A stretch of DNA of 39,586 bases from Asaia bogorensis. Its GTDB lineage: Bacteria; Pseudomonadota; Alphaproteobacteria; Acetobacterales; Acetobacteraceae. Of this stretch, positions 7,070 to 32,098 are shown piece by piece. The stretch lies in NCBI GenBank assembly GCA_945869965.1, contig CAMBRC010000037.1, positions 1 to 39,586 on the forward strand, read 5' to 3'. The notes beneath the pieces were generated by a model, which saw only the letters and a list, made by a program, of their open reading frames with translations, did not search any database and was not told the DNA's origin. The position numbers were made by a program, and so were the translations under genes. Position 1 is the first letter of the stretch, and each line of letters opens with the position of its first letter.

Positions 7070-10066
7070 TCAGGCTGGGATGTGCCAGCGGCGCAGGGCG
7101 TCGAGGCCGGCGAGGACGAGGGGTTCGAGGGCATCGACCTTCGGGCGAACGCCGTCATAGGCGCTGGCGGCAACGTCGTCCTGGATGGCGGTGGCGGCCA
7201 GCGCCAGTTGCGCCAGGCCGACGGTGCGCGCGGCGCGGGCGACGAGGCGGGCCTGGTGGCCGAGCAGGTCCATCCGGCCGGCGGCGGCGAGGTCGCGCAT
7301 GTCCTCGACCTGGCGCAGGGCGTCGGCCTGGAACTGGCGGATCACTTCGGCGGCCGGTGCGGCGCCGATATCGGCGACCAGCGCCTCCAGCCGCAACGGG
7401 TCGAAGCCGGCGGCGGTGCGCGGGGGCTCGCGGCGCGGTTGCGCCGGGGGGGGAAGCGGGGACGGCAGAGCCGCCCCTTCCGCCGCCTTCGCCGCGTTGG
7501 CCAGGACCTCGGCGATGGCGGCGCCGAGGCGGGCAGCGCTGATCGGCTTGGTTTCGAAGTGGGTCATGCCGGCGGCCAGGCAGCGCTCCTGGTCGGCGGC
7601 CATCGCGTTGGCGGTGAGGCCGATGATCGGGATGGTGCAGGCGGCACCCGAGAGGCGGCGGATCGCCTCGGTGGCGGCGATGCCGTCCATCTCCGGCATC
7701 ATGACGTCCATCAGGACGAGGTCGAAGCCGCCGCGCTGGACCGCCTCGACCGCCTCGCGGCCGTTTTCCACCGCCTCGACCCGGTGGCCCATGCGTTCGA
7801 GCATGCGGGTGGCGACCAGGCGGTTGGTCGGGTTGTCCTCGGCGATCAGGACGCGGTGCGAGGCGATGGCGGTTGCCTCGGCGGCCGCGTTGGCAAGCGG
7901 GGCGTGGCGGATCGCGTCGCCGCGCGGCAGGGTCAGCAGGACGTCAAAATGGAACGTGCTGCCGGCGCCCGGCGTGCTCTCGACGCTGATGGTGCCGCCC
8001 ATGCGCTCGACCAGGCGACGGCAGATCGCCAGGCCGAGGCCGCTGCCGCCGAAGCGGCGGGAGATCGAGCTGTCGACTTGGGTGAACTCGGTGAACAGCT
8101 TGCCCAAGGCTTCCGGCGCGATGCCGATGCCGGTGTCGGCGATCGCGAAGCCGAGGCGCACCGCCGAGCCTTCGGCGCGGACCAGCCGCACCGACAGGCG
8201 CACCGAGCCGGCGGCGGTGAACTTGATGCCGTTGCCGAGCAGGTTGAGCAGCACCTGGCGCAGGCGATGAGCGTCGCCGACGGCGCGGATGGGGACGTCG
8301 TCGGCGACGTCGACGGCCATTGCCAGGCCCTTGGCGGTGGCTTCGGCGGACATCAGCTCGACCGAATCGCGCACCACCTCGCGCATGTCGAAGGCGGTTT
8401 CCTCAAGGTCGAGGCGGCCGGCGTCCAGGCGGGAGAAATCGAGGATGTCGTTGATAAGCTGGAGCAAGTGTTGGCCGGAATCGAGGATGATGCGGACATA
8501 GTGCCGCTCGGTCTCGGCCAACGGCATGTCCTGCAGCAGGCCGGCGACGCCGATGATGCCGTTCATCGGGGTGCGGATCTCGTGGCTCATCACCGCCAGG
8601 AATTCGCTGCGGGCGCGCCCGGCGGCTTCGGCGGCGTCGCGCGCGGCGGCCAGGGCGCGCTCGTTGCGGCGGCGCTCGGTGATGTCGGTGAAGGTGCGCA
8701 CGGCGCCGCCATCCGGCAGGTGCTCGGTGCGCACTTCTAGCACCACGCCGCTCGGCCGTGTGCGCTCGAAACTGGCGTTCTGGCTGGCGAAATCGCCGGT
8801 CTCCAGGAAGCGCAGCACGCCGGGGTCAATGCGGCCGGGGGCGCCGAATTCGCCATTGTCGACCTGCCACTGGACGATGTCGCGGAAGGACGGATTCATC
8901 TGCACCAGGTCGGGCGGCAGGTCGAGCAGGCTGACGGCGCGCTGGTTCATCACCGGCACCTCGCCTTCGGCATCGACCATCATGATGCCCTGGCTGATGT
9001 TCTGCAGGGTGGCGGTCAGCGCCTGTTGGCTGCCCAGCAGGCGCTGGTGCTGGCGCTGCACCAGGCCGCCGACGGCGATCACCATGAGCGTCATCAGCAT
9101 GCCAGCGCCGACGAATTGCAGCCGGTGGCGGCGGAAGCTGGCGAAGACGTCGGTGGATTCGATGCCGATGATCACGGCCAGCGGATAGCCGCGCAGCCGG
9201 CGCCAACTGCCGATGCGGTCGGTGTCGTCGATGCCGCCGACGCCGCGGAAGGCGCCCTGGGTCTCCGCCCCCCCGGTGATCGGCACGGACTCGCTGCCGC
9301 CATAGGCCTGGCCGATGGCGCCCGGCAGTGCGGGCATGCGCGCGCGAACCACGCCGTCGGCGCCGACCACGAGCATCACCGCCTCGCCGATGTCCAGCGC
9401 CTCGGCGAAGCGCACCAGTTCCTCGGCGGCGATGGTGGCGACGATCGCCCCCTGGCTGGCGGCGTTGGGGCGGGCGGCGTCGGAGCCGGCGATCCGGCGC
9501 ATGACGTTGACGGTCCAGCGTCCGGTGGCGCGGCTGCGCACCGGCTGACCGAGCAGGAGGCGGTCCTCCCCGGCGGCACGCAGCCAGGCCAGTTCGCTGT
9601 CGGCCAGTTCCACCCGCCCGGCCGCGCCGACGCTGCTGGCGCGCACCATGCCGTCGCGGTCGAGCAGGGCGAGCTGGACCTGGCGCCGGCCCAGCACCGG
9701 GCCGCGGCTGAGGGCGACGAGATCGAAGGCGGCGGGATCGCGCAGGTAGCTTTCGCGCAGGAACAGCAGGCTCTGGTCGATCGCCTCGAAGCTGCGCTCG
9801 AGGTTCTCGGCGAAGCCATAGGCGGTGTTGCGCGCCTTCTGGATGGCGTCGAAACTGGTCTGCCGGTACTCGCGCAACAGGTGGATGTAGACGCTGCCCC
9901 AGGTCAGGCAGATCGCCACGCCGACCAGGATGGCGAACGCGTACGAGGCCCGCCACGCACCACGCCGGCGCGGCGGGGGCGCAGCGTTCGGCGGCGCGGC
10001 GGCTTCCTGGCCCGCGCCCTGTCCGGCAGGTATGGCTCCGGCAGGTATGGCTCCGGCGTCAGACAC
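7070..10066 (-). CDS. Hybrid sensor histidine kinase with receiver and degenerate Hpt domain
   Basis: A 998-aa inner-membrane kinase. In order: TM1 (about 42-61), a periplasmic Cache-like sensor (about 65-310), TM2 (about 318-337), a PAS domain (about 345-462), HisKA with phospho-acceptor His495 in SHEIRTP, HATPase with the N box [16 protein letters not shown] and GGSGLGLAI, a receiver domain with Asp787 (LMDVMMP) and Lys840, a Pro-rich linker, and a C-terminal helical domain that aligns to Hpt. In that last domain the expected His falls on Arg940 ([13 protein letters not shown]), so it probably cannot be phosphorylated. The start is GTG, followed by a duplicated AGAIP repeat. It sits alone between trpE and tpiA. 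Its signal and cognate regulator are unknown; a stand-alone Hpt is encoded at 16422-16757. Confidence 0.93.
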
Positions 10067-14079: not shown

Positions 14080-14832
14080 TTACTGGCCGCGGCCGGAGAT
14101 CATGACGTTCAGCGTGCGAACCATGATGGTCATGTCGGACAACAGCCAGCCGCCGAAGGTGGACAGCCGCATGGCATAGGCCGCGTCAAAGCCGACCTTG
14201 CGGCGGACATCCTCGACGCTGTTGTCGTAGCCCTGCACCACCTGGGTGAGGCCGGTGACGCCTGGGCGCAGGCCGGCTGTGCGGTCGGCGAAGAACGGCA
14301 CTGCCTGGTCCAGGCGGCGATACATCGCCGGGCGCTCCGGCCGTGGGCCGACCACCGACATGTCGCCCCACAGCACGTTGAGCAACTGCGGCAGCTCGTC
14401 CAGCCGGGTCTTGCGGATGAACGCGCCGACGCGGGTGATGCGAGGGTCGTCCTTGCTGGCCCAGACCGCGCCGGTGGCCTTCTCGGCATCGGTGCCCATC
14501 GAGCGGAACTTCAGGATCATGAAGAGTTCGGTGCGGTCGGTCAGCATCCGCCCCACCCGCATCTGGCGGTAGATCACCGGGCCTGGCGTGTCGAGCCGGA
14601 TTGCCAGCGCCACCAGTGGCCAGAGCGGCGCAGTCAGGATGATGCCGATCAGGGCGACGACCAGATCCATCACCCGCTTGCCCAGCTTCACGCTGGCCGG
14701 GATGTAATCCACCGCCACGAACTCCTCGGTGGTCAGCGCCTTGGTGATGCGGGTGCGGTCGGAGATCATCGGGTCCTGTGGGTTAGCCAGTGGGGTATTC
14801 GCGGGCGGGGTGTTCATCGGAGGGGCGGTCAT
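14080..14832 (-). CDS. Initiating bacterial sugar transferase (WcaJ/PssY type)
   Basis: A phosphoglycosyl transferase that would load a sugar-1-phosphate onto undecaprenyl phosphate to start an exopolysaccharide or O-antigen repeat unit. The 250 residues have a Pro-rich cytosolic start, one re-entrant hydrophobic segment (KLGKRVMDLVVALIGIIL, then TAPLWPLVALAIRL, about 49-80), the catalytic region DTPGPVIYRQMRVGR, FMILKFRSM, the signature RKTRLDELPQLLNVLWGDMS, VGPRPERP and LRPGVTGLTQV. It lacks the long N-terminal multi-membrane domain of full-length WcaJ, like the single-domain PssY/PglC group. No other polysaccharide genes adjoin it. A perfect sigma-54 promoter lies 27 bases upstream, and the next gene upstream encodes a sigma-54 activator. 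Confidence 0.93.
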   Translation of the reverse strand: MTAPPMNTPPANTPLANPQDPMISDRTRITKALTTEEFVAVDYIPASVKLGKRVMDLVVALIGIILTAPLWPLVALAIRLDTPGPVIYRQMRVGRMLTDRTELFMILKFRSMGTDAEKATGAVWASKDDPRITRVGAFIRKTRLDELPQLLNVLWGDMSVVGPRPERPAMYRRLDQAVPFFADRTAGLRPGVTGLTQVVQGYDNSVEDVRRKVGFDAAYAMRLSTFGGWLLSDMTIMVRTLNVMISGRGQ

Positions 14833-14858
14833 TCGCGGCCTTGTGCCAACAGTGACAC

Positions 14859-14874
14859 TGCAATCGCCGTGCCA
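14859..14874 (-). promoter_or_regulatory. Sigma-54 promoter of the sugar transferase gene
   Basis: On the minus strand TGGCACGGCGATTGCA: a full match to the -24/-12 consensus TGGCACG-N4-TTGCW. The -12 C is at 14860, so the expected start is near 14848, 16 bases before the ATG at 14832. A short dyad ACAC-gcg-GTGT at 14905-14915 lies upstream and could be part of an activator site, though it is close to the promoter. Confidence 0.8.
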
Positions 14875-14946
14875 TTGTCTAGAAATGTTACGCCGGGTGA
14901 TGGGACACGCGGTGTATGGGTCAGGAGCGGCACAATCGGTGGCATC

Positions 14947-16425
14947 TCAGTCGACCGGCAGGAGGCCGTCGGCCCGCCAGTTCTGCAACTTGCGGTAGAC
15001 GGTTGAGGGATTGATCTCCAGCAGCGCGGCGGCGCGCGGAACGTCCTGTCCGGTCTGGCGCAAGGCCGCCAGGATCAGCCGGCGCTCCATCACCGCCAGC
15101 GGTACGATCGGATCGTCGGGCGTCGCCTCGGCCGGCTCGACCGCTGGGCGGACAATGCGCGCGGCTGCGACCGGTGCGTCCGTCGCGCCGGCCGGCGGCG
15201 GCTCGGCCAGCGGCATTTTGTCGTCGACGCCAGGGGCGCGGCGGACGGCGCGCGGGATCATGTCCAGCTCCACCCGGTCGCCATCGTGCAGCACCACGAT
15301 GTTGCGCACCACGTTTTGCAGTTGGCGCACATTGCCCGGCCAACCATAGGTGGCCAGGGCGTGCTCGGCCGCGGCGCTGAAGCCCTGAAAGCCCCGCCCC
15401 CCCTCGCGCGCGAACTGGGTCAGGAAGTGGCGCGCGATCATCAGCACATCCTCGCCGCGCGCCCGCAGCGGCGGCAATTCGACCGGCACGACGTAAAGAC
15501 GATAATAGAGGTCCTCGCGGAACCGCCCGGCCTGGACCTCCAGCATCGGGTCGCGGTTGGTGGCGCAGACGAAGCGCACATCGACCCGTTCCAGCCGCGA
15601 CGAACCGACCGGCGAGAAGGTGCCTGTCTGCACGAAGCGCAGCAGTTTTACCTGCATTTCCAACGGCATCTCGCCGATTTCGTCGAGGAAGAGCGTGCCG
15701 CCATCCGCGAGTTTGGCCGCCCCCTCGCGGTCGGCGCTGGCGCCGGTGAAGGCGCCGCGGATATGGCCGAAGACCTCGCTTTCCAGCAGGTCGCGCGGGA
15801 TGGCGCCGCAATTCAGCGCTACGAAATTGCGCCCGGCGCGCGGGCTGGCGCGGTGCACCGCCTCGGCCGCCAGCTCCTTGCCGGTGCCGCTCTCACCGGT
15901 GATGAAGACGCTGGCCTTGCTGGCCGAGACGCTCTCGATGGTGCGATAGGCCGACTGCATCGGGGTGGAGGCGCCGATGAAGCCGAAAAACTGGTCGCGG
16001 TCCAGCCGCGCCTTGACGGTGGCGAGTTGGGTGACCAGCGCCCGCTTTTCCAGCGCATTGGCCAGCGTCACCGACAGCCGCGCCTTGGCATAGGGCTTGA
16101 CGATGAAATCGACCGCGCCGGCGCGCATCGCCTCGACCGCAGTGTTGATCGAGGCATTGGCGGTCACCACGATCACCGAGGTCTCGATCCCCTCGGCGCG
16201 CAGCCGCTGCATCAGCTCGAAGCCGTTGTAATCCGGCAGCTCGATGTCCAGCAGGATCGCGTCCGGCCGCCAGGTCCGCGCCGCCACCAGCGCGGCGCCG
16301 GCCGATTCCACCAGTTCGACCTGATGGCCCAGTCCGGCCAGCAATGCGCGCGCCAGTTGCGCCTGGGTCGGTGTGTCCTCCACCACCAGGACGCGGGCGC
16401 CGGTCGAGCTCCCGGCGTCACTCAT
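14947..16425 (-). CDS. NtrC-family sigma-54 response regulator
   Basis: A 492-aa transcription activator. Receiver domain about 10-125 with phospho-acceptor Asp60 (ILLDIELPDYNG) and Lys110; AAA+ domain about 145-385 with Walker A GESGTGKE (177-184), the sigma-54 contact loop GAFTGA (224-229) and Walker B GGTLFLDEIGE; and a Fis-type helix-turn-helix at the C-terminus (RQTGQDVPRAAALLEINPST then VYRKLQNW). All parts for phosphorylation-controlled opening of sigma-54 promoters are present. The start at 16425 overlaps the stop of the Hpt gene by ATGA, so the two are translationally coupled. Sigma-54-type promoters occur in front of both flanking units. Confidence 0.95.
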   Translation of the reverse strand: MSDAGSSTGARVLVVEDTPTQAQLARALLAGLGHQVELVESAGAALVAARTWRPDAILLDIELPDYNGFELMQRLRAEGIETSVIVVTANASINTAVEAMRAGAVDFIVKPYAKARLSVTLANALEKRALVTQLATVKARLDRDQFFGFIGASTPMQSAYRTIESVSASKASVFITGESGTGKELAAEAVHRASPRAGRNFVALNCGAIPRDLLESEVFGHIRGAFTGASADREGAAKLADGGTLFLDEIGEMPLEMQVKLLRFVQTGTFSPVGSSRLERVDVRFVCATNRDPMLEVQAGRFREDLYYRLYVVPVELPPLRARGEDVLMIARHFLTQFAREGGRGFQGFSAAAEHALATYGWPGNVRQLQNVVRNIVVLHDGDRVELDMIPRAVRRAPGVDDKMPLAEPPPAGATDAPVAAARIVRPAVEPAEATPDDPIVPLAVMERRLILAALRQTGQDVPRAAALLEINPSTVYRKLQNWRADGLLPVD

Positions 16426-16757
16426 GGCGCAGAATCGAGTTTGGCGAGAAATACCGCGAGATCGTCCAGCGCGCCGACCGCCAGCGCGTCGATCTCGGAC
16501 GAGGCCTGGGCCATCGGGACCGCATCGGCCATTGCCTGCCGGCACGCCTCCTCCAGCCGCACCGCACCGACAGCGCCGGCCGCCCCCGCCAGGCCATGGG
16601 CCGCGCGGCGGAATGCGACGTTGTCCGCCGCGGTGATGGCCGTGGCCAATGCACCGGTCAGGCGCTGGACATCGGTGCGAAACACCCCGAGCACCAGGCG
16701 CAGATCGTCCGGCGTCAGGTCTTCGGCCAGTTGCGCGGCGAATCTCAGATCGCTCAT
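16422..16757 (-). CDS. Stand-alone Hpt phosphotransfer protein
   Basis: A 111-aa four-helix protein with a histidine phosphotransfer motif FRRAAHGLAGAAGAVGA (49-65); His54 is the phospho-acceptor. Between a hybrid kinase's receiver and a response regulator such a protein passes the phosphate on. It is encoded immediately before, and overlapping by four bases (ATGA) with, the NtrC-type regulator, its obvious partner. The start at 16757 is chosen over a longer frame to 16907 because the domain begins right after it. No histidine kinase is encoded next to it; the nearest is the hybrid kinase at 7070-10066, whose own Hpt domain appears dead. Confidence 0.88.
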   Translation of the reverse strand: MSDLRFAAQLAEDLTPDDLRLVLGVFRTDVQRLTGALATAITAADNVAFRRAAHGLAGAAGAVGAVRLEEACRQAMADAVPMAQASSEIDALAVGALDDLAVFLAKLDSAP

Positions 16758-16878
16758 GCTGCTCTTTCGCTCATCCAATGGTTGAGCCCGATGTGGAAAT
16801 CCACCCCGCTTCTCCCCCGGCGATCTAGAATCGCCCGGGATAGACTCGTCCAATACGGGTTGCCTGCGCAAGGGCGGC

Positions 16879-16914
16879 AGAAAAAGACCCGGATGGCCAT
16901 CGGCCACCCGGGTC
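16879..16914 (-). terminator. Intrinsic terminator after the STAS gene
   Basis: On the minus strand a strong stem GACCCGG...CCGGGTC (16914-16908 with 16892-16886), with a second inner stem TGGCC/GGCCA around an ATC-type loop, is followed directly by TTTTTC (16885-16880). This is a canonical GC stem plus U-tract. It lies about 70 bases past the STAS stop codon and separates it from the Hpt-regulator pair. Confidence 0.85.
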
Positions 16915-16984
16915 GCTGAAATGCAGTTCGGAGAAAAACGAGGTCATCCCACGGGACGAACCCCTTGAAATTTCGTAGAATACG

Positions 16985-17341
16985 CTACCGGGCCCAGGCG
17001 ATGCCGGGGATCGAAAAAAACGACCGCCGCGCCCCCTGCTCTTTCACGCCCAAGGTCTTGGCGAGGCCGAGATGACGCAACATGGCGAGCGGCTGGCCGG
17101 AAACCCCGGCCAAGGACAGCCGCCGACCGCGGGCGGTCAGGCGCTTGAAAAGGAACGACAGGGCGCCAACGCCGGAGCCGTCGATAAACGTCACGTGGGA
17201 AAGATCGATCACAACATCCCGTGCCTCGACGGCAGCCAGGGCAACCAGGCTGTCCCGCATGGTGCGGCTCGCCTCGCTGTCCAGGCCGCCCTTGAGGTGC
17301 AAACGCACCAGGCCGGGTTCACTTTGAATACGCTCGAACAT
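16985..17341 (-). CDS. STAS-domain protein (anti-anti-sigma type)
   Basis: A 118-aa single STAS domain: LVRLHLKGGLDSEASRTMRD, VVIDLSHVTFIDGSGVGAL and a C-terminal LAMLRHLGLAKTLGV. The Ser in DGSG is where anti-anti-sigma factors of the SpoIIAA type are phosphorylated, so it may be a partner-switch protein controlled by a serine kinase/phosphatase; MlaB-like lipid-transport STAS proteins are an alternative, but no Mla genes are nearby. The start ATG 17341 has TTGAGGA six bases upstream. A -24/-12 element lies 60 bases upstream (17402-17417) and a terminator follows, so it is a one-gene unit beside the sigma-54 regulator. Confidence 0.85.
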   Translation of the reverse strand: MFERIQSEPGLVRLHLKGGLDSEASRTMRDSLVALAAVEARDVVIDLSHVTFIDGSGVGALSFLFKRLTARGRRLSLAGVSGQPLAMLRHLGLAKTLGVKEQGARRSFFSIPGIAWAR

Positions 17342-17401
17342 TACAATCCTCAATTTCGGCGGCACCGGCGGTCAATGCTGTGCCGGGCCTGACGGATACA
17401 A

Positions 17402-17417
17402 TGCACGCCCCGTGCCA
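17402..17417 (-). promoter_or_regulatory. Sigma-54-like promoter of the STAS gene
   Basis: On the minus strand TGGCACGGGGCGTGCA: a perfect -24 half (TGGCACG) and a -12 half GTGCA, one base off TTGCA, with correct N4 spacing. The predicted start would be near 17391, about 50 bases before the ATG at 17341. With the perfect site at 14859-14874 this makes two sigma-54-type promoters flanking one NtrC-type regulator. Confidence 0.65.
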
Positions 17418-17493
17418 ACGGCCTGAGGCAGCGCGGGGCCTTCTGCGGCCGCTAACGTGACAGATATTACCGATTTCCTACCGGGATTCTCTC

Positions 17494-17552
17494 GCAAATT
17501 GCGGGGCAATTTAAGAAACCCGTCATCCGCGATGCAAATTGCGATTTCTTAA
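17494..17552. promoter_or_regulatory. Inverted and direct repeats between 17593 gene and STAS
   Basis: The 9-bp dyad GCAAATTGC occurs twice, 40 bases apart (17494-17502, 17534-17542). An inverted pair TTAAGAAA (17511-17518) / TTTCTTAA (17545-17552) overlaps them. The block lies about 80-135 bases upstream of the STAS sigma-54-like element, a distance typical of upstream activator sites. It could equally be the 3' end of the 17593-17865 transcript. Function inferred only. Confidence 0.4.
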
Positions 17553-17592: not shown

Positions 17593-17865
17593 TCACGGCT
17601 TGACGCGCGGCGCCTGTTCCTCTGGTCCCGCCGGATAGATCGCGGTCTCAAGCTCCGCTACGCGGCGCGACCAGGCTTCGAGAACCTGTGCCAATGCCTC
17701 GAGATCCGTGCGTTGCAGGTCGTCAAGGTCGTCGTACTCGCCCTGGGCGATGCGAAACGCCAGCTCGGCGGCCGCGTCGCGCATCTGCAGGCTGGTGGGC
17801 GTCCCGGACAGGCTTTCGAGCACCGCGGCCGAAATTACCATGGGAGTGCCGCGCATGCATCGCAT
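17593..17865 (-). CDS. Small hypothetical protein
   Basis: 90 residues, unrecognised. An acidic, Leu/Glu-rich helical protein (LAFRIAQGEYDDLDDLQRTD then LEALAQVLEAWSRRVAELE) with a charged tail; probably a helical bundle or coiled coil, without membrane segments or Cys motifs. The ATG at 17865 is weakly supported; ATG 17841 (MVISAAVLES) is an alternative. It lies in the same direction as the STAS gene, about 250 bases upstream of it. Confidence 0.5.
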   Translation of the reverse strand: MRCMRGTPMVISAAVLESLSGTPTSLQMRDAAAELAFRIAQGEYDDLDDLQRTDLEALAQVLEAWSRRVAELETAIYPAGPEEQAPRVKP

Positions 17866-23364: not shown

Positions 23365-23802
23365 ATGCGCCACCTCGACGACCTCGCGCTCGGCACCAGC
23401 TTCCCCTGCGGCAGCTTCACCCTGACTCGCGAAGCCATCATCGCCTTCGCCGCCCAGTTCGACCCGCAGCCCTTCCACCTCGACGACGAAGCCGCGGCTA
23501 AATCCTACTTCGGCCGCCTCTGCGCCTCCGGCCTGCATACCCAGGGCATGGCCATCGGCCTCATGGTCCGCGCCATTGCCGAAATCGCCGTCGTCGCCGG
23601 CTACGCCCTACATGAGGCCCGTTTCATGGAACCGGTCTGGCCCGATACCGACTACGATGTGAGCGCGTGCTGGACCGCCATCAGCCCATCGCCGCGCGAC
23701 CCCGCGCGCGGCCGCGCAATGCTGGCGATTGCGGTGACACGACAAGGCCAACCCGTGGCAAAACTCGGCGTGACCTACGTGGTTGCCCGCCGCGCCACCT
23801 GA
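23365..23802 (+). CDS. MaoC-like hydratase
   Basis: A 145-aa hot-dog fold protein of the R-specific enoyl-CoA hydratase (MaoC/PhaJ) type. The hydratase-2 motif is clear: FAAQFDPQPFHLDDEAAAKS then FGRLCASGLHT, with Asp and His as the catalytic pair. Such enzymes hydrate enoyl-CoA or related unsaturated acyl thioesters; substrate unknown. Its 3' end overlaps by 28 bases with the tail of the PEP-CTERM gene on the other strand. CCCCTCCTG precedes the ATG, a weak ribosome site. Confidence 0.87.
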   Translation: MRHLDDLALGTSFPCGSFTLTREAIIAFAAQFDPQPFHLDDEAAAKSYFGRLCASGLHTQGMAIGLMVRAIAEIAVVAGYALHEARFMEPVWPDTDYDVSACWTAISPSPRDPARGRAMLAIAVTRQGQPVAKLGVTYVVARRAT

Positions 23803-24602
23803 CGCCGCATCAGACCCAGCCCAAGCAGCCCGACAGTCAGCACCATCGCACTCATTGGCTCGGGCACTGAGGTCGAGTTACCACCGGTGCCGCAATAGGG
23901 ATACGGATTGCCATTGCTGCACGTCGGCGGCGGCGCATTCGGCACCAGATTCGGTTCGCTCAGCGCCGTGCCATACTGGAATGACAGATTGTTGATCCCC
24001 GCCAGCCCCGCCGCCCCGCCGGTATAATTGTCGAGAACGAACACCACCGAATTGCGGATGAACGCATTGCCATCCATCCCGCCATTGCCACCACCCGACT
24101 GCGAGCTTGCCGGGACGATGCCGTACTGCATCCCGTCGAGCGCCACCGGGTTCTGCAGATTCGGTCCGTTGAAATTGGCGCCGCCGAAAATCCCCAGCCC
24201 CGAACTCGATATCCCCGCACTGGCACCGTTCGGCAGCCCGCTCACCACATTGTACGCCCACTCGCCCCCAACATTGTCTCCGGGCGGCTGCTGGTTGGCA
24301 TAGATCCCGGTATTGTTGACCGTATTGATCACGGTGCTGCCCGCGGCCAACAGCGCGCTGGTCGGGGTCAAGCCGTTCAACCCGCTGAAGAACACCGCGG
24401 TAAGGACTCCCGTCGGCTCCGCGGCCTCGGTGAGCGAAGTATTGGTCAGAACCACCTGCAACTTGCTGCCCGGCAGCACATCGAACGACACCGATGCGGC
24501 AAGCGCACCGGCCTGCGCGGAAAAGGTCACGGCCGCCTGGGCGGTCACGGGCGCGATGGCGATCCCGGTGGCAAAGGCCAAGGCAATGCTGACTCGCATC
24601 AT
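23775..24602 (-). CDS. PEP-CTERM sorted secreted protein
   Basis: About 275 residues with an N-terminal signal peptide (MMRVSIALAFATGIAIAP then VTAQA), a Gly/Asn/Ser-rich beta-type body (GGNGGMDGNAFIRNSVVFVL, YNVVSGLPNGASAG, NNLSFQYGTALSEPNLVP), a small Cys pair (TCSNGNPYPYCG) and a C-terminal VPEP motif, hydrophobic helix (MVLTVGLLGLGL) and Arg-rich end (MRRQVARR). That is the PEP-CTERM sorting signal, processed by exosortase in organisms that make exopolysaccharide. The exosortase is not in the window. GAAGGA lies before ATG 24602; an upstream ATG at 24629 is possible. The function of the body is unknown. Confidence 0.85.
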   Translation of the reverse strand: MMRVSIALAFATGIAIAPVTAQAAVTFSAQAGALAASVSFDVLPGSKLQVVLTNTSLTEAAEPTGVLTAVFFSGLNGLTPTSALLAAGSTVINTVNNTGIYANQQPPGDNVGGEWAYNVVSGLPNGASAGISSSGLGIFGGANFNGPNLQNPVALDGMQYGIVPASSQSGGGNGGMDGNAFIRNSVVFVLDNYTGGAAGLAGINNLSFQYGTALSEPNLVPNAPPPTCSNGNPYPYCGTGGNSTSVPEPMSAMVLTVGLLGLGLMRRQVARRATT

Positions 24603-24916
24603 CTCATGGCATCCTTCAAAAAACGACATTAGGAAAAAAACGAGGCTTGATATCGGCTATTTAGAGCCACTCCACTTGCGAATCCATAACCGAGTTGTAG
24701 GAATTTAGTAACGAATGATTACAGCACGTATCAGACGTCGGGCGGACGCTTCCCAACGAAGCTATTTTTTGGAAAAAGAAACCAAAAAAACTTTAAAGCA
24801 TATAGGGATAGCGAAGCTTCCTAAGTGTCAGCCCGGAGCGTCTGATGATTGAGGCGCGGCAAGGGATTTCTGGTGCCGCGAAGGAGGAGACGCCAGCTCG
24901 CCTTGCATCGAACCCA
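24603..24916. other. Divergent intergenic region PEP-CTERM / TPR-glycosyltransferase
   Basis: About 310 bases between two divergent starts. The part 24630-24740 is AT-richer (for example GATATCGGCTATTTAGAG) and may hold the promoter of the PEP-CTERM gene. One degenerate hairpin arm lies at 24758-24800. From 24845 an open frame joins the TPR protein, whose start is uncertain. Nothing else was recognised. Confidence 0.5.
24758..24800. repeat. Single, degenerate AT-rich hairpin arm
   Basis: CTATTTTTTGGAAAAAGAAACC then AAAAAAACTTTAAAGC: left-arm orientation with mismatches in the outer stem. No partner arm nearby. It lies between two divergently transcribed genes, so it cannot be the terminator of either. 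Confidence 0.65.
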
Positions 24917-29828: not shown

Positions 29829-31946
29829 CTAACCATCGATACTGCCCCTCCCTGCCACAATCGCTGTCAATCGCCTCAAGCACTCATCCACCCATTCATC
29901 TCCGGGGCGGGCATCGACCGATCCAGTGGTCTCTATCACGTCGCGCAGTGTCTCAAGTTCACTGATCACATTCAAAGTCTCAACACTTACTAAATAACCT
30001 GGCGGGACAAGCAGTCCAGCATAACTGCGAAGCGCTTCTAAGCTATTCAACTGAATCGTGAGAGAAGACCGGAGCTCGGTATCCCACGCCTCAGCGTCGA
30101 TCATTACAAAAATGATATCTGAATTTGCCAAGCGACGAAGAAGAACCCCGTCCAGAACCGCCTTGCGATACCACGGCAGTTCACGCGAAAGCAAATCGGC
30201 CGTCTCTTGCTTGGTCATAACCTCGCCACCTCTCGGGCCACTGGAACCCGAAGTCATACCGTGAGCATAAAGCTGGTCGCGAAGAAGCCTTGGCAGGATT
30301 AGGAGGTCATCGGCATCGACCAGAGCGCCGACCGCATTCTGCACTCGAGATCGCCGGCTCGGATCCCGTCGTGCCATCCGAGCCAACGTCCGCGCAGCAC
30401 TCAGCGCAAGTTGGCGTGCAACCTCATATCTGGTCAACCAATCGCTGTCCCGACGCAATGCTCGCGCCAGCGCAACCCAGAAAGTCAGATCGCCTGTGCC
30501 CGGCAAGGACGGCAGGAGGTCGTCCAATCGATCCAATACATCCTCTAGACTCCCTCGCTCCAAATGCTGTCGAAGCTTACTTTCTAACTCATCAACGCCG
30601 GATTCGTTCCATAGACGTTCCAAATCCCTGCGCCGTATCATACCGGGGGGATTGCCAAGATAGAGCAACCGAAGCAGGTTCCGCCTTTTAGAGACTCGGT
30701 CCCCGTCATAATCTTCACTATCTCCCGCAGCACCAGGGAACAATAACTTTAAAGTTTCCTCGTGAGGAATCGCCGCGTCGCCAAGAATTTTAATGAAGGA
30801 ACGCCGCTCAAACTTATTCATTTTCCGCGCGAAACGCGCGAGCATTGCCTTCTCTCCTGGGTCGTCGACCAATTCATCAATGTTGTCGGCGATACCTTCA
30901 CGCACCGTCGGTGACTTTGTCATGATCCAACAGTACCCGAGGACATCATATGGACACACCTCCCCACTGACCGCCCTCTCGACGACCGAAAATGCGCCGA
31001 CCAAACGTTTAATTTCCCGCGGCGTTTCTATCTCGCTGACAATATGGGAAAAAAGTGTGTCTTGATTATTATTTCTTGGTGATTCCAATTTTATCCCGTA
31101 GTCCGAAATAGACGAATTCAAAAACGCCTTCACCTCCTGCTGAAACAATGGGCGAAGAGGGATGGGGTGTTGAATAATTTTCTCAAGATAACGTTCTCCG
31201 GCCTCACGATTCTCCGGGCCGCTTCCTCGTCCAAGCGCCCGAACAACCCTCTCCGGATCATAAGCCACCAAGTACGACACACCCCTGACTTCTCCAATAG
31301 CCTTGATCAGTTGCGCGACAGCGCGGACTTCATCATCCTCCACACGATCCAACTCATCGATCAGGACAACGACGGCGCGCCCAGCCCGCGCAATCTTCTC
31401 TTCAAGTGCTTTCCGCTCCTCGTCGGGAGTGCGAGGAACTGCCTTATAAAATTTATCTGAAAGTAGTTTCGGTAGCTTTGTCCAGACTCCTGTGGCTGCG
31501 CCACCTGCAACAACGAGATCAGCAGCCAACGCCGCACTTTGAGCGCCGAACCGTACTGCCCCCCAATACCGATCCAAAGCCTCGACAAGCCCTCGTGCCG
31601 CCTCTCCTCGACTTTTTCCCATACTGCTGCGAAGGGCGTTAAAAAAGCCCGCTACAAGCTCATCGCGCCCCTTGAACAACCAGGGGTTGAAGAATGAAAC
31701 AACAACATTCTCCGTCTCCTCTAGCCTTTTGGCGACGAGATTCAGCACACTAGACTTCCCCAACCCCCACCGGCCCGTGAGACCCACGACATAGCCGGTT
31801 GCCCGTACTTGATGGTCTGTGCCGTCCTGGACCTTCACCACCAGAGCTCGGATCAGACTGTCGATAAATGGCCCACGATCAAGCTGGTCATGGTTCTCGG
31901 ACCAGATCGGGCGGTCCTGACGGGCGACATGAGGTTCTTGAGTCAT
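29829..31946 (-). CDS. KAP-family P-loop NTPase
   Basis: About 705 residues. Walker A lies in VVGLTGRWGLGKSSVLNLVA and is followed by FFNPWLFKGRDEL, a KAP hallmark. Between Walker A and Walker B is the family's insert with a weakly hydrophobic Ala-rich stretch (GAQSAALAADLVVAGGAATG), which may be a membrane-associating segment. Walker B is AVVVLIDELDRVEDDEV, then YLVAYDPERVV. The C-terminal 400 residues are helical and unassigned. Bacterial KAP NTPases are membrane-linked and often carried on mobile or defence-rich DNA; the role here is unknown. The GC content is far below that of the neighbours, in places under 45%, so it was probably acquired recently. AGGA lies upstream of ATG 31946; ATG 31976 is the alternative. 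It appears as a lone gene. Confidence 0.85.
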   Translation of the reverse strand: MTQEPHVARQDRPIWSENHDQLDRGPFIDSLIRALVVKVQDGTDHQVRATGYVVGLTGRWGLGKSSVLNLVAKRLEETENVVVSFFNPWLFKGRDELVAGFFNALRSSMGKSRGEAARGLVEALDRYWGAVRFGAQSAALAADLVVAGGAATGVWTKLPKLLSDKFYKAVPRTPDEERKALEEKIARAGRAVVVLIDELDRVEDDEVRAVAQLIKAIGEVRGVSYLVAYDPERVVRALGRGSGPENREAGERYLEKIIQHPIPLRPLFQQEVKAFLNSSISDYGIKLESPRNNNQDTLFSHIVSEIETPREIKRLVGAFSVVERAVSGEVCPYDVLGYCWIMTKSPTVREGIADNIDELVDDPGEKAMLARFARKMNKFERRSFIKILGDAAIPHEETLKLLFPGAAGDSEDYDGDRVSKRRNLLRLLYLGNPPGMIRRRDLERLWNESGVDELESKLRQHLERGSLEDVLDRLDDLLPSLPGTGDLTFWVALARALRRDSDWLTRYEVARQLALSAARTLARMARRDPSRRSRVQNAVGALVDADDLLILPRLLRDQLYAHGMTSGSSGPRGGEVMTKQETADLLSRELPWYRKAVLDGVLLRRLANSDIIFVMIDAEAWDTELRSSLTIQLNSLEALRSYAGLLVPPGYLVSVETLNVISELETLRDVIETTGSVDARPGDEWVDECLRRLTAIVAGRGSIDG

Positions 31947-32098
31947 TGACCAACCGCTTCCTATGGTGAGCGCCATTTAGGGCTTGGAAGCGAGCATCGC
32001 CTACGGGCATGCATCCAAGCTGGCCAATCGTAACGTTAAGAACAGCGATCAGCTACGTCCCATAGCAAACATGAACAAAAACGATCCAATATTAATAA

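What the first reader, a model, noticed from the sequence alone, without database searches (positions are those of the whole stretch)
14080..17417. Self-contained sigma-54 phosphorelay: Hpt + NtrC-type regulator flanked by two sigma-54 promoters
An Hpt gene overlaps an NtrC-family activator by ATGA. The downstream sugar transferase gene has a perfect -24/-12 element (TGGCACG-N4-TTGCA, 14874-14859) and the upstream STAS gene has one with a single mismatch (17417-17402). An intrinsic terminator (16879-16914) isolates STAS from the pair. So both neighbours of the activator carry the kind of promoter it would open. I know of no described Hpt-NtrC circuit controlling an initiating glycosyltransferase together with a STAS switch protein. 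The elements are seen directly; that this regulator drives these promoters is inference.
Basis: partly seen in the sequence, partly recalled or inferred. Interest (0 to 1): 0.75.

Follow-up and report, generated by a model that had tools for sequence, protein, structure and literature searches.

The report
LuxO/SypG-type relay for polysaccharide genes
A relative of the acetic acid bacteria carries a compact version of the biofilm control circuit known from Vibrio, in which a phosphate relay appears to switch on genes for making surface polysaccharide; the kind of circuit is known, but this branch, with an altered switch protein, seems undescribed.

Summary
The sequence features are real. The transferase -24/-12 site is one of 4 perfect matches in the 4.7-Mb genome (control 0). 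The STAS site alone is chance-grade (59 hits with up to one mismatch, control 40), but 16 of 17 STAS homologs examined have such a site. In the window genome only the STAS promoter has that dyad 29-121 bp above a complete -24/-12. The activator falls in a 51-row clade with Vibrio LuxO and SypG (100/100) and is paired with an Hpt, as LuxO is with LuxU. STAS and transferase match SypA and the transferase at the end of a Vibrio syp locus. So there is a precedent: syp. It is not self-contained; a nearby hybrid kinase with a His-less Hpt-like domain is the likely input (inferred). Twists: the SypA-like STAS proteins lack SypA's regulatory serine (13 of 13 aligned), and the transferase's only enhancer candidate lies within the activator's recognition-helix codons, possibly by coincidence. 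A new variant of a known kind; no experiment.

The parts
14080..14832 (-). Initiating sugar transferase, catalytic domain only (SypR-like)
   Evidence: PF02397 E 4e-56; best match in V. amylolyticus 54% over residues 46-250, a 228-aa PF02397 protein on the sypG contig
14859..14874 (-). Perfect -24/-12 (sigma-54) element of the transferase
   Evidence: 1 of 4 perfect sites in the genome, control 0; site with at most 2 mismatches in 8 of 11 loci
14947..16425 (-). LuxO/SypG-like sigma-54 activator (receiver, AAA+, Fis-type HTH)
   Evidence: LuxO model 577 bits, below its cut-off of 800; 51-row clade with LuxO and SypG 100/100
14980..14998 (-). Candidate intragenic enhancer CTACCGCAAGTTGCAGAAC, 119 bp above the transferase -24; codons YRKLQN of the activator's HTH
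   Evidence: Score 12.5; null 1.4% for 12 or more in 230 bp; may be a coding coincidence
16422..16757 (-). Stand-alone Hpt protein; overlaps the activator gene by ATGA
   Evidence: PF01627 E 1e-9; His54 invariant in 18 of 18 aligned
16879..16914 (-). Intrinsic terminator behind STAS
   Evidence: Fold z -4.4; related hairpins in the genus
16985..17341 (-). SypA-like STAS-domain-only protein with Gly at SypA's phosphoserine position
   Evidence: PF01740; best match in V. amylolyticus E 1.1e-14, 33%; alignment
17402..17417 (-). -24/-12 element of STAS, one mismatch
   Evidence: such a site in 16 of 17 loci
17489..17507 (-). Enhancer dyad copy 2, GCCCCGCAATTTGCGAGAG, 85 bp above the STAS -24
17529..17547 (-). 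Enhancer dyad copy 1, AAATCGCAATTTGCATCGC, 125 bp above the STAS -24
7070..10066 (-). Hybrid histidine kinase (PAS_7, HisKA, HATPase_c, receiver), candidate input kinase; start codon uncertain
   Evidence: homolog beside the transferase in L031 and convergent with hpt in L114
7073..7405 (-). Hpt-like C-terminal domain of that kinase, phospho-His position Arg
   Evidence: hhalign with the Hpt set, probability 66%, E 5.6e-5; model like HptB, TM 0.80, Foldseek E 0.027; no Pfam Hpt match up to E 0.1

Best explanation
This is an Acetobacteraceae branch of the LuxO/SypG family of phosphorelay circuits. Most likely a hybrid kinase, probably 7070-10066, whose own Hpt-like domain has no phosphorylatable histidine, passes phosphate from its receiver to the stand-alone Hpt, and this to the receiver of the activator. 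The phosphorylated activator binds GCA-WWW-TGC dyads and opens the sigma-54 promoter of the SypA-like STAS gene and, less surely, that of the SypR-like initiating sugar transferase, so that exopolysaccharide synthesis is switched on. The STAS protein lacks the serine by which SypA is switched off, so its control is probably transcriptional. Shown by sequence: gene identities, conserved promoters and dyads, family placement, residue losses. Inferred: the kinase, direction of phosphate flow, binding of this activator to these dyads, the polysaccharide output, the role of STAS.
For: Activator in a 51-row clade with LuxO and SypG, 100/100, apart from the genome's own NtrC and C200 activators; 462 and 452 bits to LuxO and SypG of V. 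amylolyticus, next 270. There luxU, an Hpt, directly follows luxO (both above their NCBIfam cut-offs). Hpt directly upstream of the activator in 31 of 80 named loci. STAS -24/-12 in 16 of 17 loci. Dyad GCA-N3-TGC above 14 of 14 STAS genes, expected 3.1, equal to the core of TTGCAWWWTGCAA (PMC10162802, passages). STAS promoter the only one in the genome with the dyad 29-121 bp above a complete -24/-12. Outside the loci used for the matrix the dyad also precedes -24/-12 sites in front of glmS in L051, L052, L117, L122 (18.6-22.4) and of the L031 transferase (21.0). STAS and transferase match SypA and the syp-end transferase. RpoN is encoded.
Against: No experiment. The activator misses the LuxO equivalog cut-off (577 of 800), and the branching order relative to LuxO and SypG is weakly supported (81/74, 88/89). 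The transferase promoter has no intergenic dyad in the window; its candidate lies in codons and matches in loci without a downstream promoter too. Three of 11 transferase loci lack the -24/-12. L054 lacks the STAS dyad and L115 has 3 promoter mismatches. The kinase assignment rests on neighbourhood. No close relative of the SypD-like gene of L052 in the genome (best E 3.7e-6, 34%), so a complete syp locus is not shown.
Confidence: 0.75

Rival explanations
1. The activator drives only the STAS promoter; the transferase promoter is opened by another sigma-54 activator of the genome, as the PEP-CTERM promoters presumably are.
For: The other perfect sites of this genome in front of genes (L126, L127) have no dyad (best scores 2.3 and 3.4). 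The transferase's only candidate (12.5) is in codons, and similar coding scores of 12 or more occur in loci without a downstream -24/-12, e.g. L032, L039, L040, L053. Other activators exist: NtrC, a FlbD-like and the C200 protein.
Against: The transferase directly follows the activator; in L031 the transferase, and in L051, L052, L117, L122 glmS in the same place, have dyad plus -24/-12. L108 and L110 have a further intergenic dyad of score 10.2.
Confidence: 0.3
2. The relay is fed by other kinases; the kinase at 7070-10066 is merely a neighbour.
For: In the genus ppiD, trpE and the transferase lie between; other hybrid kinases lie near STAS in L034-L036 and L054. Its homologs were looked for in fetched loci only, which favours neighbours.
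Against: Homologs matching sensor to C-terminus lie beside the transferase in L031 (51%) and convergent with hpt in L114 (51%), with other genes around, and in the 6 homologs that reach the position it is Arg (5) or Gly (1), so a separate Hpt would be needed.
Confidence: 0.5
3. The -24/-12 sites are chance matches and the genes are transcribed by other sigma factors.
For: The one-mismatch STAS site is at chance level in a single genome (59 against 40).
Against: Conservation in 16 of 17 STAS loci and dyads in the right place.
Confidence: 0.05

Closest known systems
Vibrio fischeri syp locus (RscS/SypF, SypG, SypA, SypE) and scv of V. parahaemolyticus (ScvE)
   Same: LuxO-like sigma-54 activator at the end of a phosphorelay; a STAS-only protein and a PF02397 transferase, with best matches to the syp versions; enhancer core GCA-N3-TGC. 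L042, L052 and L122 carry Wza-like export and P-loop genes next to hpt as well (L052 scored)
   Different: Stand-alone Hpt; four genes here, no complete locus shown; STAS without the SypE-phosphorylated serine; genus terminator between STAS and hpt. The scv survey names only Elstera and Terasakiella among Alphaproteobacteria (PMC8941931, passages)
LuxQ/LuxN-LuxU-LuxO quorum-sensing relay of Vibrio
   Same: Single-domain Hpt gene next to the activator gene; closest characterised activators are LuxO and SypG; same enhancer core
   Different: Gene order reversed (hpt first); the window Hpt is not matched by the LuxU model at E 0.001 and barely by LuxU's structure (E 0.87); targets are STAS and transferase, no Rfam match near
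PrsR/PEP-CTERM sigma-54 regulation
   Same: PEP-CTERM genes with perfect -24/-12 in the same genome
   Different: PrsR-type model TIGR02915 354 bits, cut-off 503; those promoters lack the dyad

Membership tests
LuxO/SypG superfamily of sigma-54 activators | Receiver, AAA+ with GAFTGA, Fis-type HTH, phylogenetic placement | tested here: met
   51-row clade 100/100 with LuxO and SypG
LuxO equivalog (NF041946) | Score above the curated cut-off of 800 | tested here: not met
   577 bits; the Vibrio LuxO scores 861, the Vibrio SypG 604
LuxU equivalog (NF041948) | Match to the LuxU model | tested here: not met
   Not among matches at E 0.001; generic Hpt domain met
LuxO/SypG-type enhancer and sigma-54 promoter | TTGCAWWWTGCAA-like site upstream of -24/-12 | tested here: met
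   STAS promoter: TCGCAATTTGCAT and CCGCAATTTGCGA (11 and 10 of 13 positions)
LuxO/SypG-type enhancer and sigma-54 promoter | The same at the transferase promoter | tested here: inconclusive
   Perfect -24/-12, dyad only within activator codons
syp locus | SypG, SypA and SypR homologs in one locus | tested here: met
syp locus | Complete polysaccharide gene set (export, glycosyltransferases) in the locus | tested here: not met
   Window neighbours are housekeeping genes; SypD-like query finds only a weak match on C93
SypA/SpoIIAA-type phospho-switch | Phosphorylatable Ser after Asp in D-S-S-G | tested here: not met
   Gly in 12 and Asn in 1 of 13 aligned rows; KR (V. fischeri K67/R68) kept in 11 of 13
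Functional relay | RpoN-dependent transcription and phosphotransfer | not testable with these tools
   Needs the bench

The most novel reading that the evidence does not exclude
Probability: 0.2. Interest if true: 0.7.

Novelty: new variant of a known kind. Interest (0 to 1): 0.45.

Why it matters
It places a LuxO/SypG-type control of polysaccharide genes in the Acetobacteraceae. In an open-licence paper library, searches combining LuxO, LuxU, SypG or syp with Acetobacteraceae, Alphaproteobacteria, Roseomonas or Rhodospirillales listed no description of it; one search showed 12 of 142 papers, so this is weak evidence of absence. The target of SypA in Vibrio is described as unknown (PMC8256260, passages); a SypA relative without the off-switch serine, probably controlled by transcription, could be a simpler place to find it. 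The conserved dyad plus -24/-12 with changing genes behind it (transferase or glmS) shows how such a circuit is rewired.

Tried and rejected
Rejected: the STAS -24/-12 as significant on single-genome statistics. Rejected: the perfect site in L125 as a promoter; by my simple gene caller it lies inside a coding gene near rpoN. Rejected: the PEP-CTERM promoters as targets of this activator; no exosortase PF09721 in the 97%-complete genome. Rejected: the two other -24-plus-dyad hits (C1, C70), which lack GC at -12. These scans used exact TGGCAYG and GCAWWWTGC, so degenerate sites, the transferase's among them, are missed. Withdrawn: my first tree (47 rows) made the Acetobacteraceae group sister to LuxO+SypG, but a motif filter had dropped the Rhodobacteraceae; with 87 rows the Rhodobacteraceae come nearer (88/89) and the order is unsure. 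One search left out L065, L171 and L129 (short matches). Inconclusive: codon evidence for the intragenic enhancer. The Leu codon of YRKLQ is TTG in 9 of 10 transferase-bearing rows and 2 of 17 other rows (L034, TTG, left out because its contig ends; L031 has no YRKLQ), but 7 of the 10 are one genus and coding dyads of 12 or more occur without a downstream promoter. Not pursued: the -24/-12-like site above the small gene 17593-17865 in congeners, absent in the window. The dyad matrix was trained on 14 loci that are among the 17 STAS loci, so the STAS scores there are circular; the glmS and transferase scores are not.
Full report
What is there. The genome has 4.735 Mb in 209 contigs, 97% complete; the nearest named records are Acetobacteraceae and unclassified Rhodospirillales. 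It encodes RpoN. A perfect TGGCACG-N4-TTGCW occurs 4 times, control 0: the transferase promoter, two promoters of PEP-CTERM proteins (L126, L127) and one site inside a coding gene. With up to one mismatch there are 59 hits, control 40, so the STAS site needs other support.

Conservation. Of 80 named loci found with the activator, 31 show an Hpt match directly upstream. A -24/-12 with at most two mismatches lies within 150 bp of the STAS start in 16 of 17 loci examined (perfect in L032, L034, L035, L036; L115 has 3 mismatches); random 150-bp stretches do so in 1.7%. For the transferase it is 8 of 11; L033, L035 and L036 lack it. In L051, L052, L117, L122 and L115 the gene after the activator is glmS: L052's protein is above the glmS cut-off and the others match it at 98, 51, 76 and 59% (L115 partial at a contig end). 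A -24/-12 with 1 mismatch (2 in L117) stands in front. The promoter stays while the gene behind it changes.

Enhancer. A search for palindromic dyads in 330 bp above 14 STAS genes gave GCA-N3-TGC in 14 of 14 (Markov expectation 3.1) and GCAA-N1-TTGC in 9 of 14 (0.47); GCA-N7-TGC, in 13 of 14, is the -24/-12 itself. GCA-N3-TGC is the centre of the LuxO enhancer TTGCAWWWTGCAA, and SypG's site overlaps it (PMC10162802, passages). The window has copies 125 and 85 bp above the STAS -24. In the window genome, TGGCAYG with GCAWWWTGC 29-121 bp above it occurs at the STAS promoter (both copies), at C1 and at C70; the reversed control gave 0, 0 and 1. Only the STAS promoter has GC at -12. Outside the 14 training loci, dyads score 18.6-22.4 above glmS in L051, L052, L117 and L122; the L031 transferase scores 21.0 (L031's STAS region was in training, its transferase region was not). 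Scores of 12 or more arise in 1.4% of random 230-bp stretches. Against: L115 has only 7.4 between activator and glmS, and L054 only 3.5 above STAS.

The transferase promoter. No dyad lies between activator and transferase in the window. 119 bp above the -24 lies CTACCGCAAGTTGCAGAAC (12.5), codons YRKLQN of the activator's recognition helix. It is kept in the seven same-genus rows, with the less used Leu codon TTG, but coding dyads of 12 or more also occur in loci without a downstream -24/-12. It may be an intragenic enhancer or a coincidence of coding; I leave it open.

The relay. The activator lies in a 51-row clade with Vibrio LuxO and SypG (100/100), apart from the genome's NtrC and C200 activators; within it a Rhodobacteraceae group is nearest, weakly (88/89), and long branches are present. 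It scores 462 and 452 bits to LuxO and SypG of V. amylolyticus, next 270. There luxU directly follows luxO. The window Hpt keeps His54 in 18 of 18 aligned, but is not matched by the LuxU model and hardly by LuxU's structure (E 0.87). The hybrid kinase at 7070-10066 ends in a domain that aligns with the Hpt set (hhalign probability 66%, E 5.6e-5) and whose single-sequence model (pLDDT 82) is most like HptB (7c1i, TM 0.80, probability 1.00, E 0.027; none at E 0.001 or below); Pfam does not see it. The phospho-His position is Arg in window, L109, L110, L112 (contig ends just after) and L114, Gly in L031: 6 of 6 that reach it. Such a kinase would need a partner Hpt. Homologs lie beside the transferase in L031 and convergent with hpt in L114. 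That it feeds this relay is inference.

The targets. The STAS protein's best match in V. amylolyticus (E 1.1e-14, 33%) lies at the head of its syp-like locus, where SypA belongs. Both share SGVGAL...KRL...GQPL, but DSSG is DGSG here; the residue after Asp is Gly in 12 and Asn in 1 of 13 aligned rows, and KR is kept in 11 of 13. SypE phosphorylates SypA at Ser56 and unphosphorylated SypA is active (PMC8256260, passages); K67 and R68 are needed (PMC4517449, passages). The spacing to KR makes the first Ser of DSSG the Ser56 equivalent; it is also the residue changed to Ala in one SpoIIAA chain (recalled as S58A). The second Ser remains in the window, but four of the 13 rows (L031, L041, L045, L054) have none there. 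So this looks like a SypA that cannot be switched off in the known way. The transferase's best match (54%) is a PF02397 protein about 12.5 kb downstream of sypG on the same contig, the place of sypR (name recalled). In L031, L045, L054 and L115 STAS and hpt overlap or are at most 59 bp apart without a terminator, so there the STAS promoter probably drives the regulator too.

Against known systems. V. fischeri syp is the direct precedent: SypF passes phosphate to SypG, which with sigma-54 activates four syp promoters, sypA among them (PMC10804989, passages). Syp-like scv loci were reported in 28 genera, of Alphaproteobacteria only Elstera and Terasakiella (PMC8941931, passages). A 2004 comparison of 138 organisms found LuxU by reciprocal best hits only in Vibrio (PMC524169, passages). 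My searches (listings only) showed nothing on Acetobacteraceae.

Noticed in passing
L126:9873-10655 and L127:9138-9824 (window genome C93, C99): Two PEP-CTERM proteins, one at the end of an exopolysaccharide cluster, stand behind perfect -24/-12 sites, yet no exosortase (PF09721) was found in the 97%-complete genome.
   Followed up: partly
window 23775-24629: Secreted protein with a PEP-CTERM-like tail, below the Pfam cut-off (E 0.068).
   Followed up: no
L030 7627-7690 (same in L112): A 23-bp unit holding CGGCACGCCGATTGC is repeated in tandem in front of the transferase, so the -24/-12-like site is multiplied.
   Followed up: no
window 17593-17865; L007, L008, L010, L011, L012: Small conserved gene of unknown family; five congener loci have a -24/-12-like site (0-1 mismatch) upstream, in a hairpin-like stretch in some, absent in the window.
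   Followed up: partly
L060, L061, L063, L064, L066-L070, L074, L078: Rhodobacteraceae carry activators nearest to the Acetobacteraceae group in the tree; no match to the window Hpt in these loci at E 1e-4.
   Followed up: no
L072, downstream of the activator: In a gammaproteobacterium with a related activator, a strong dyad (24.2) lies just downstream of the gene.
   Followed up: no
window 29829-31976: KAP-family NTPase gene with low third-position GC (0.55) against its surroundings, perhaps acquired.
   Followed up: no
L041: Record titled Solirubrobacterales, but it equals a contig of a same-family genome (L115) by length and matches and groups with Acetobacteraceae: probably mislabelled.
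   Followed up: no
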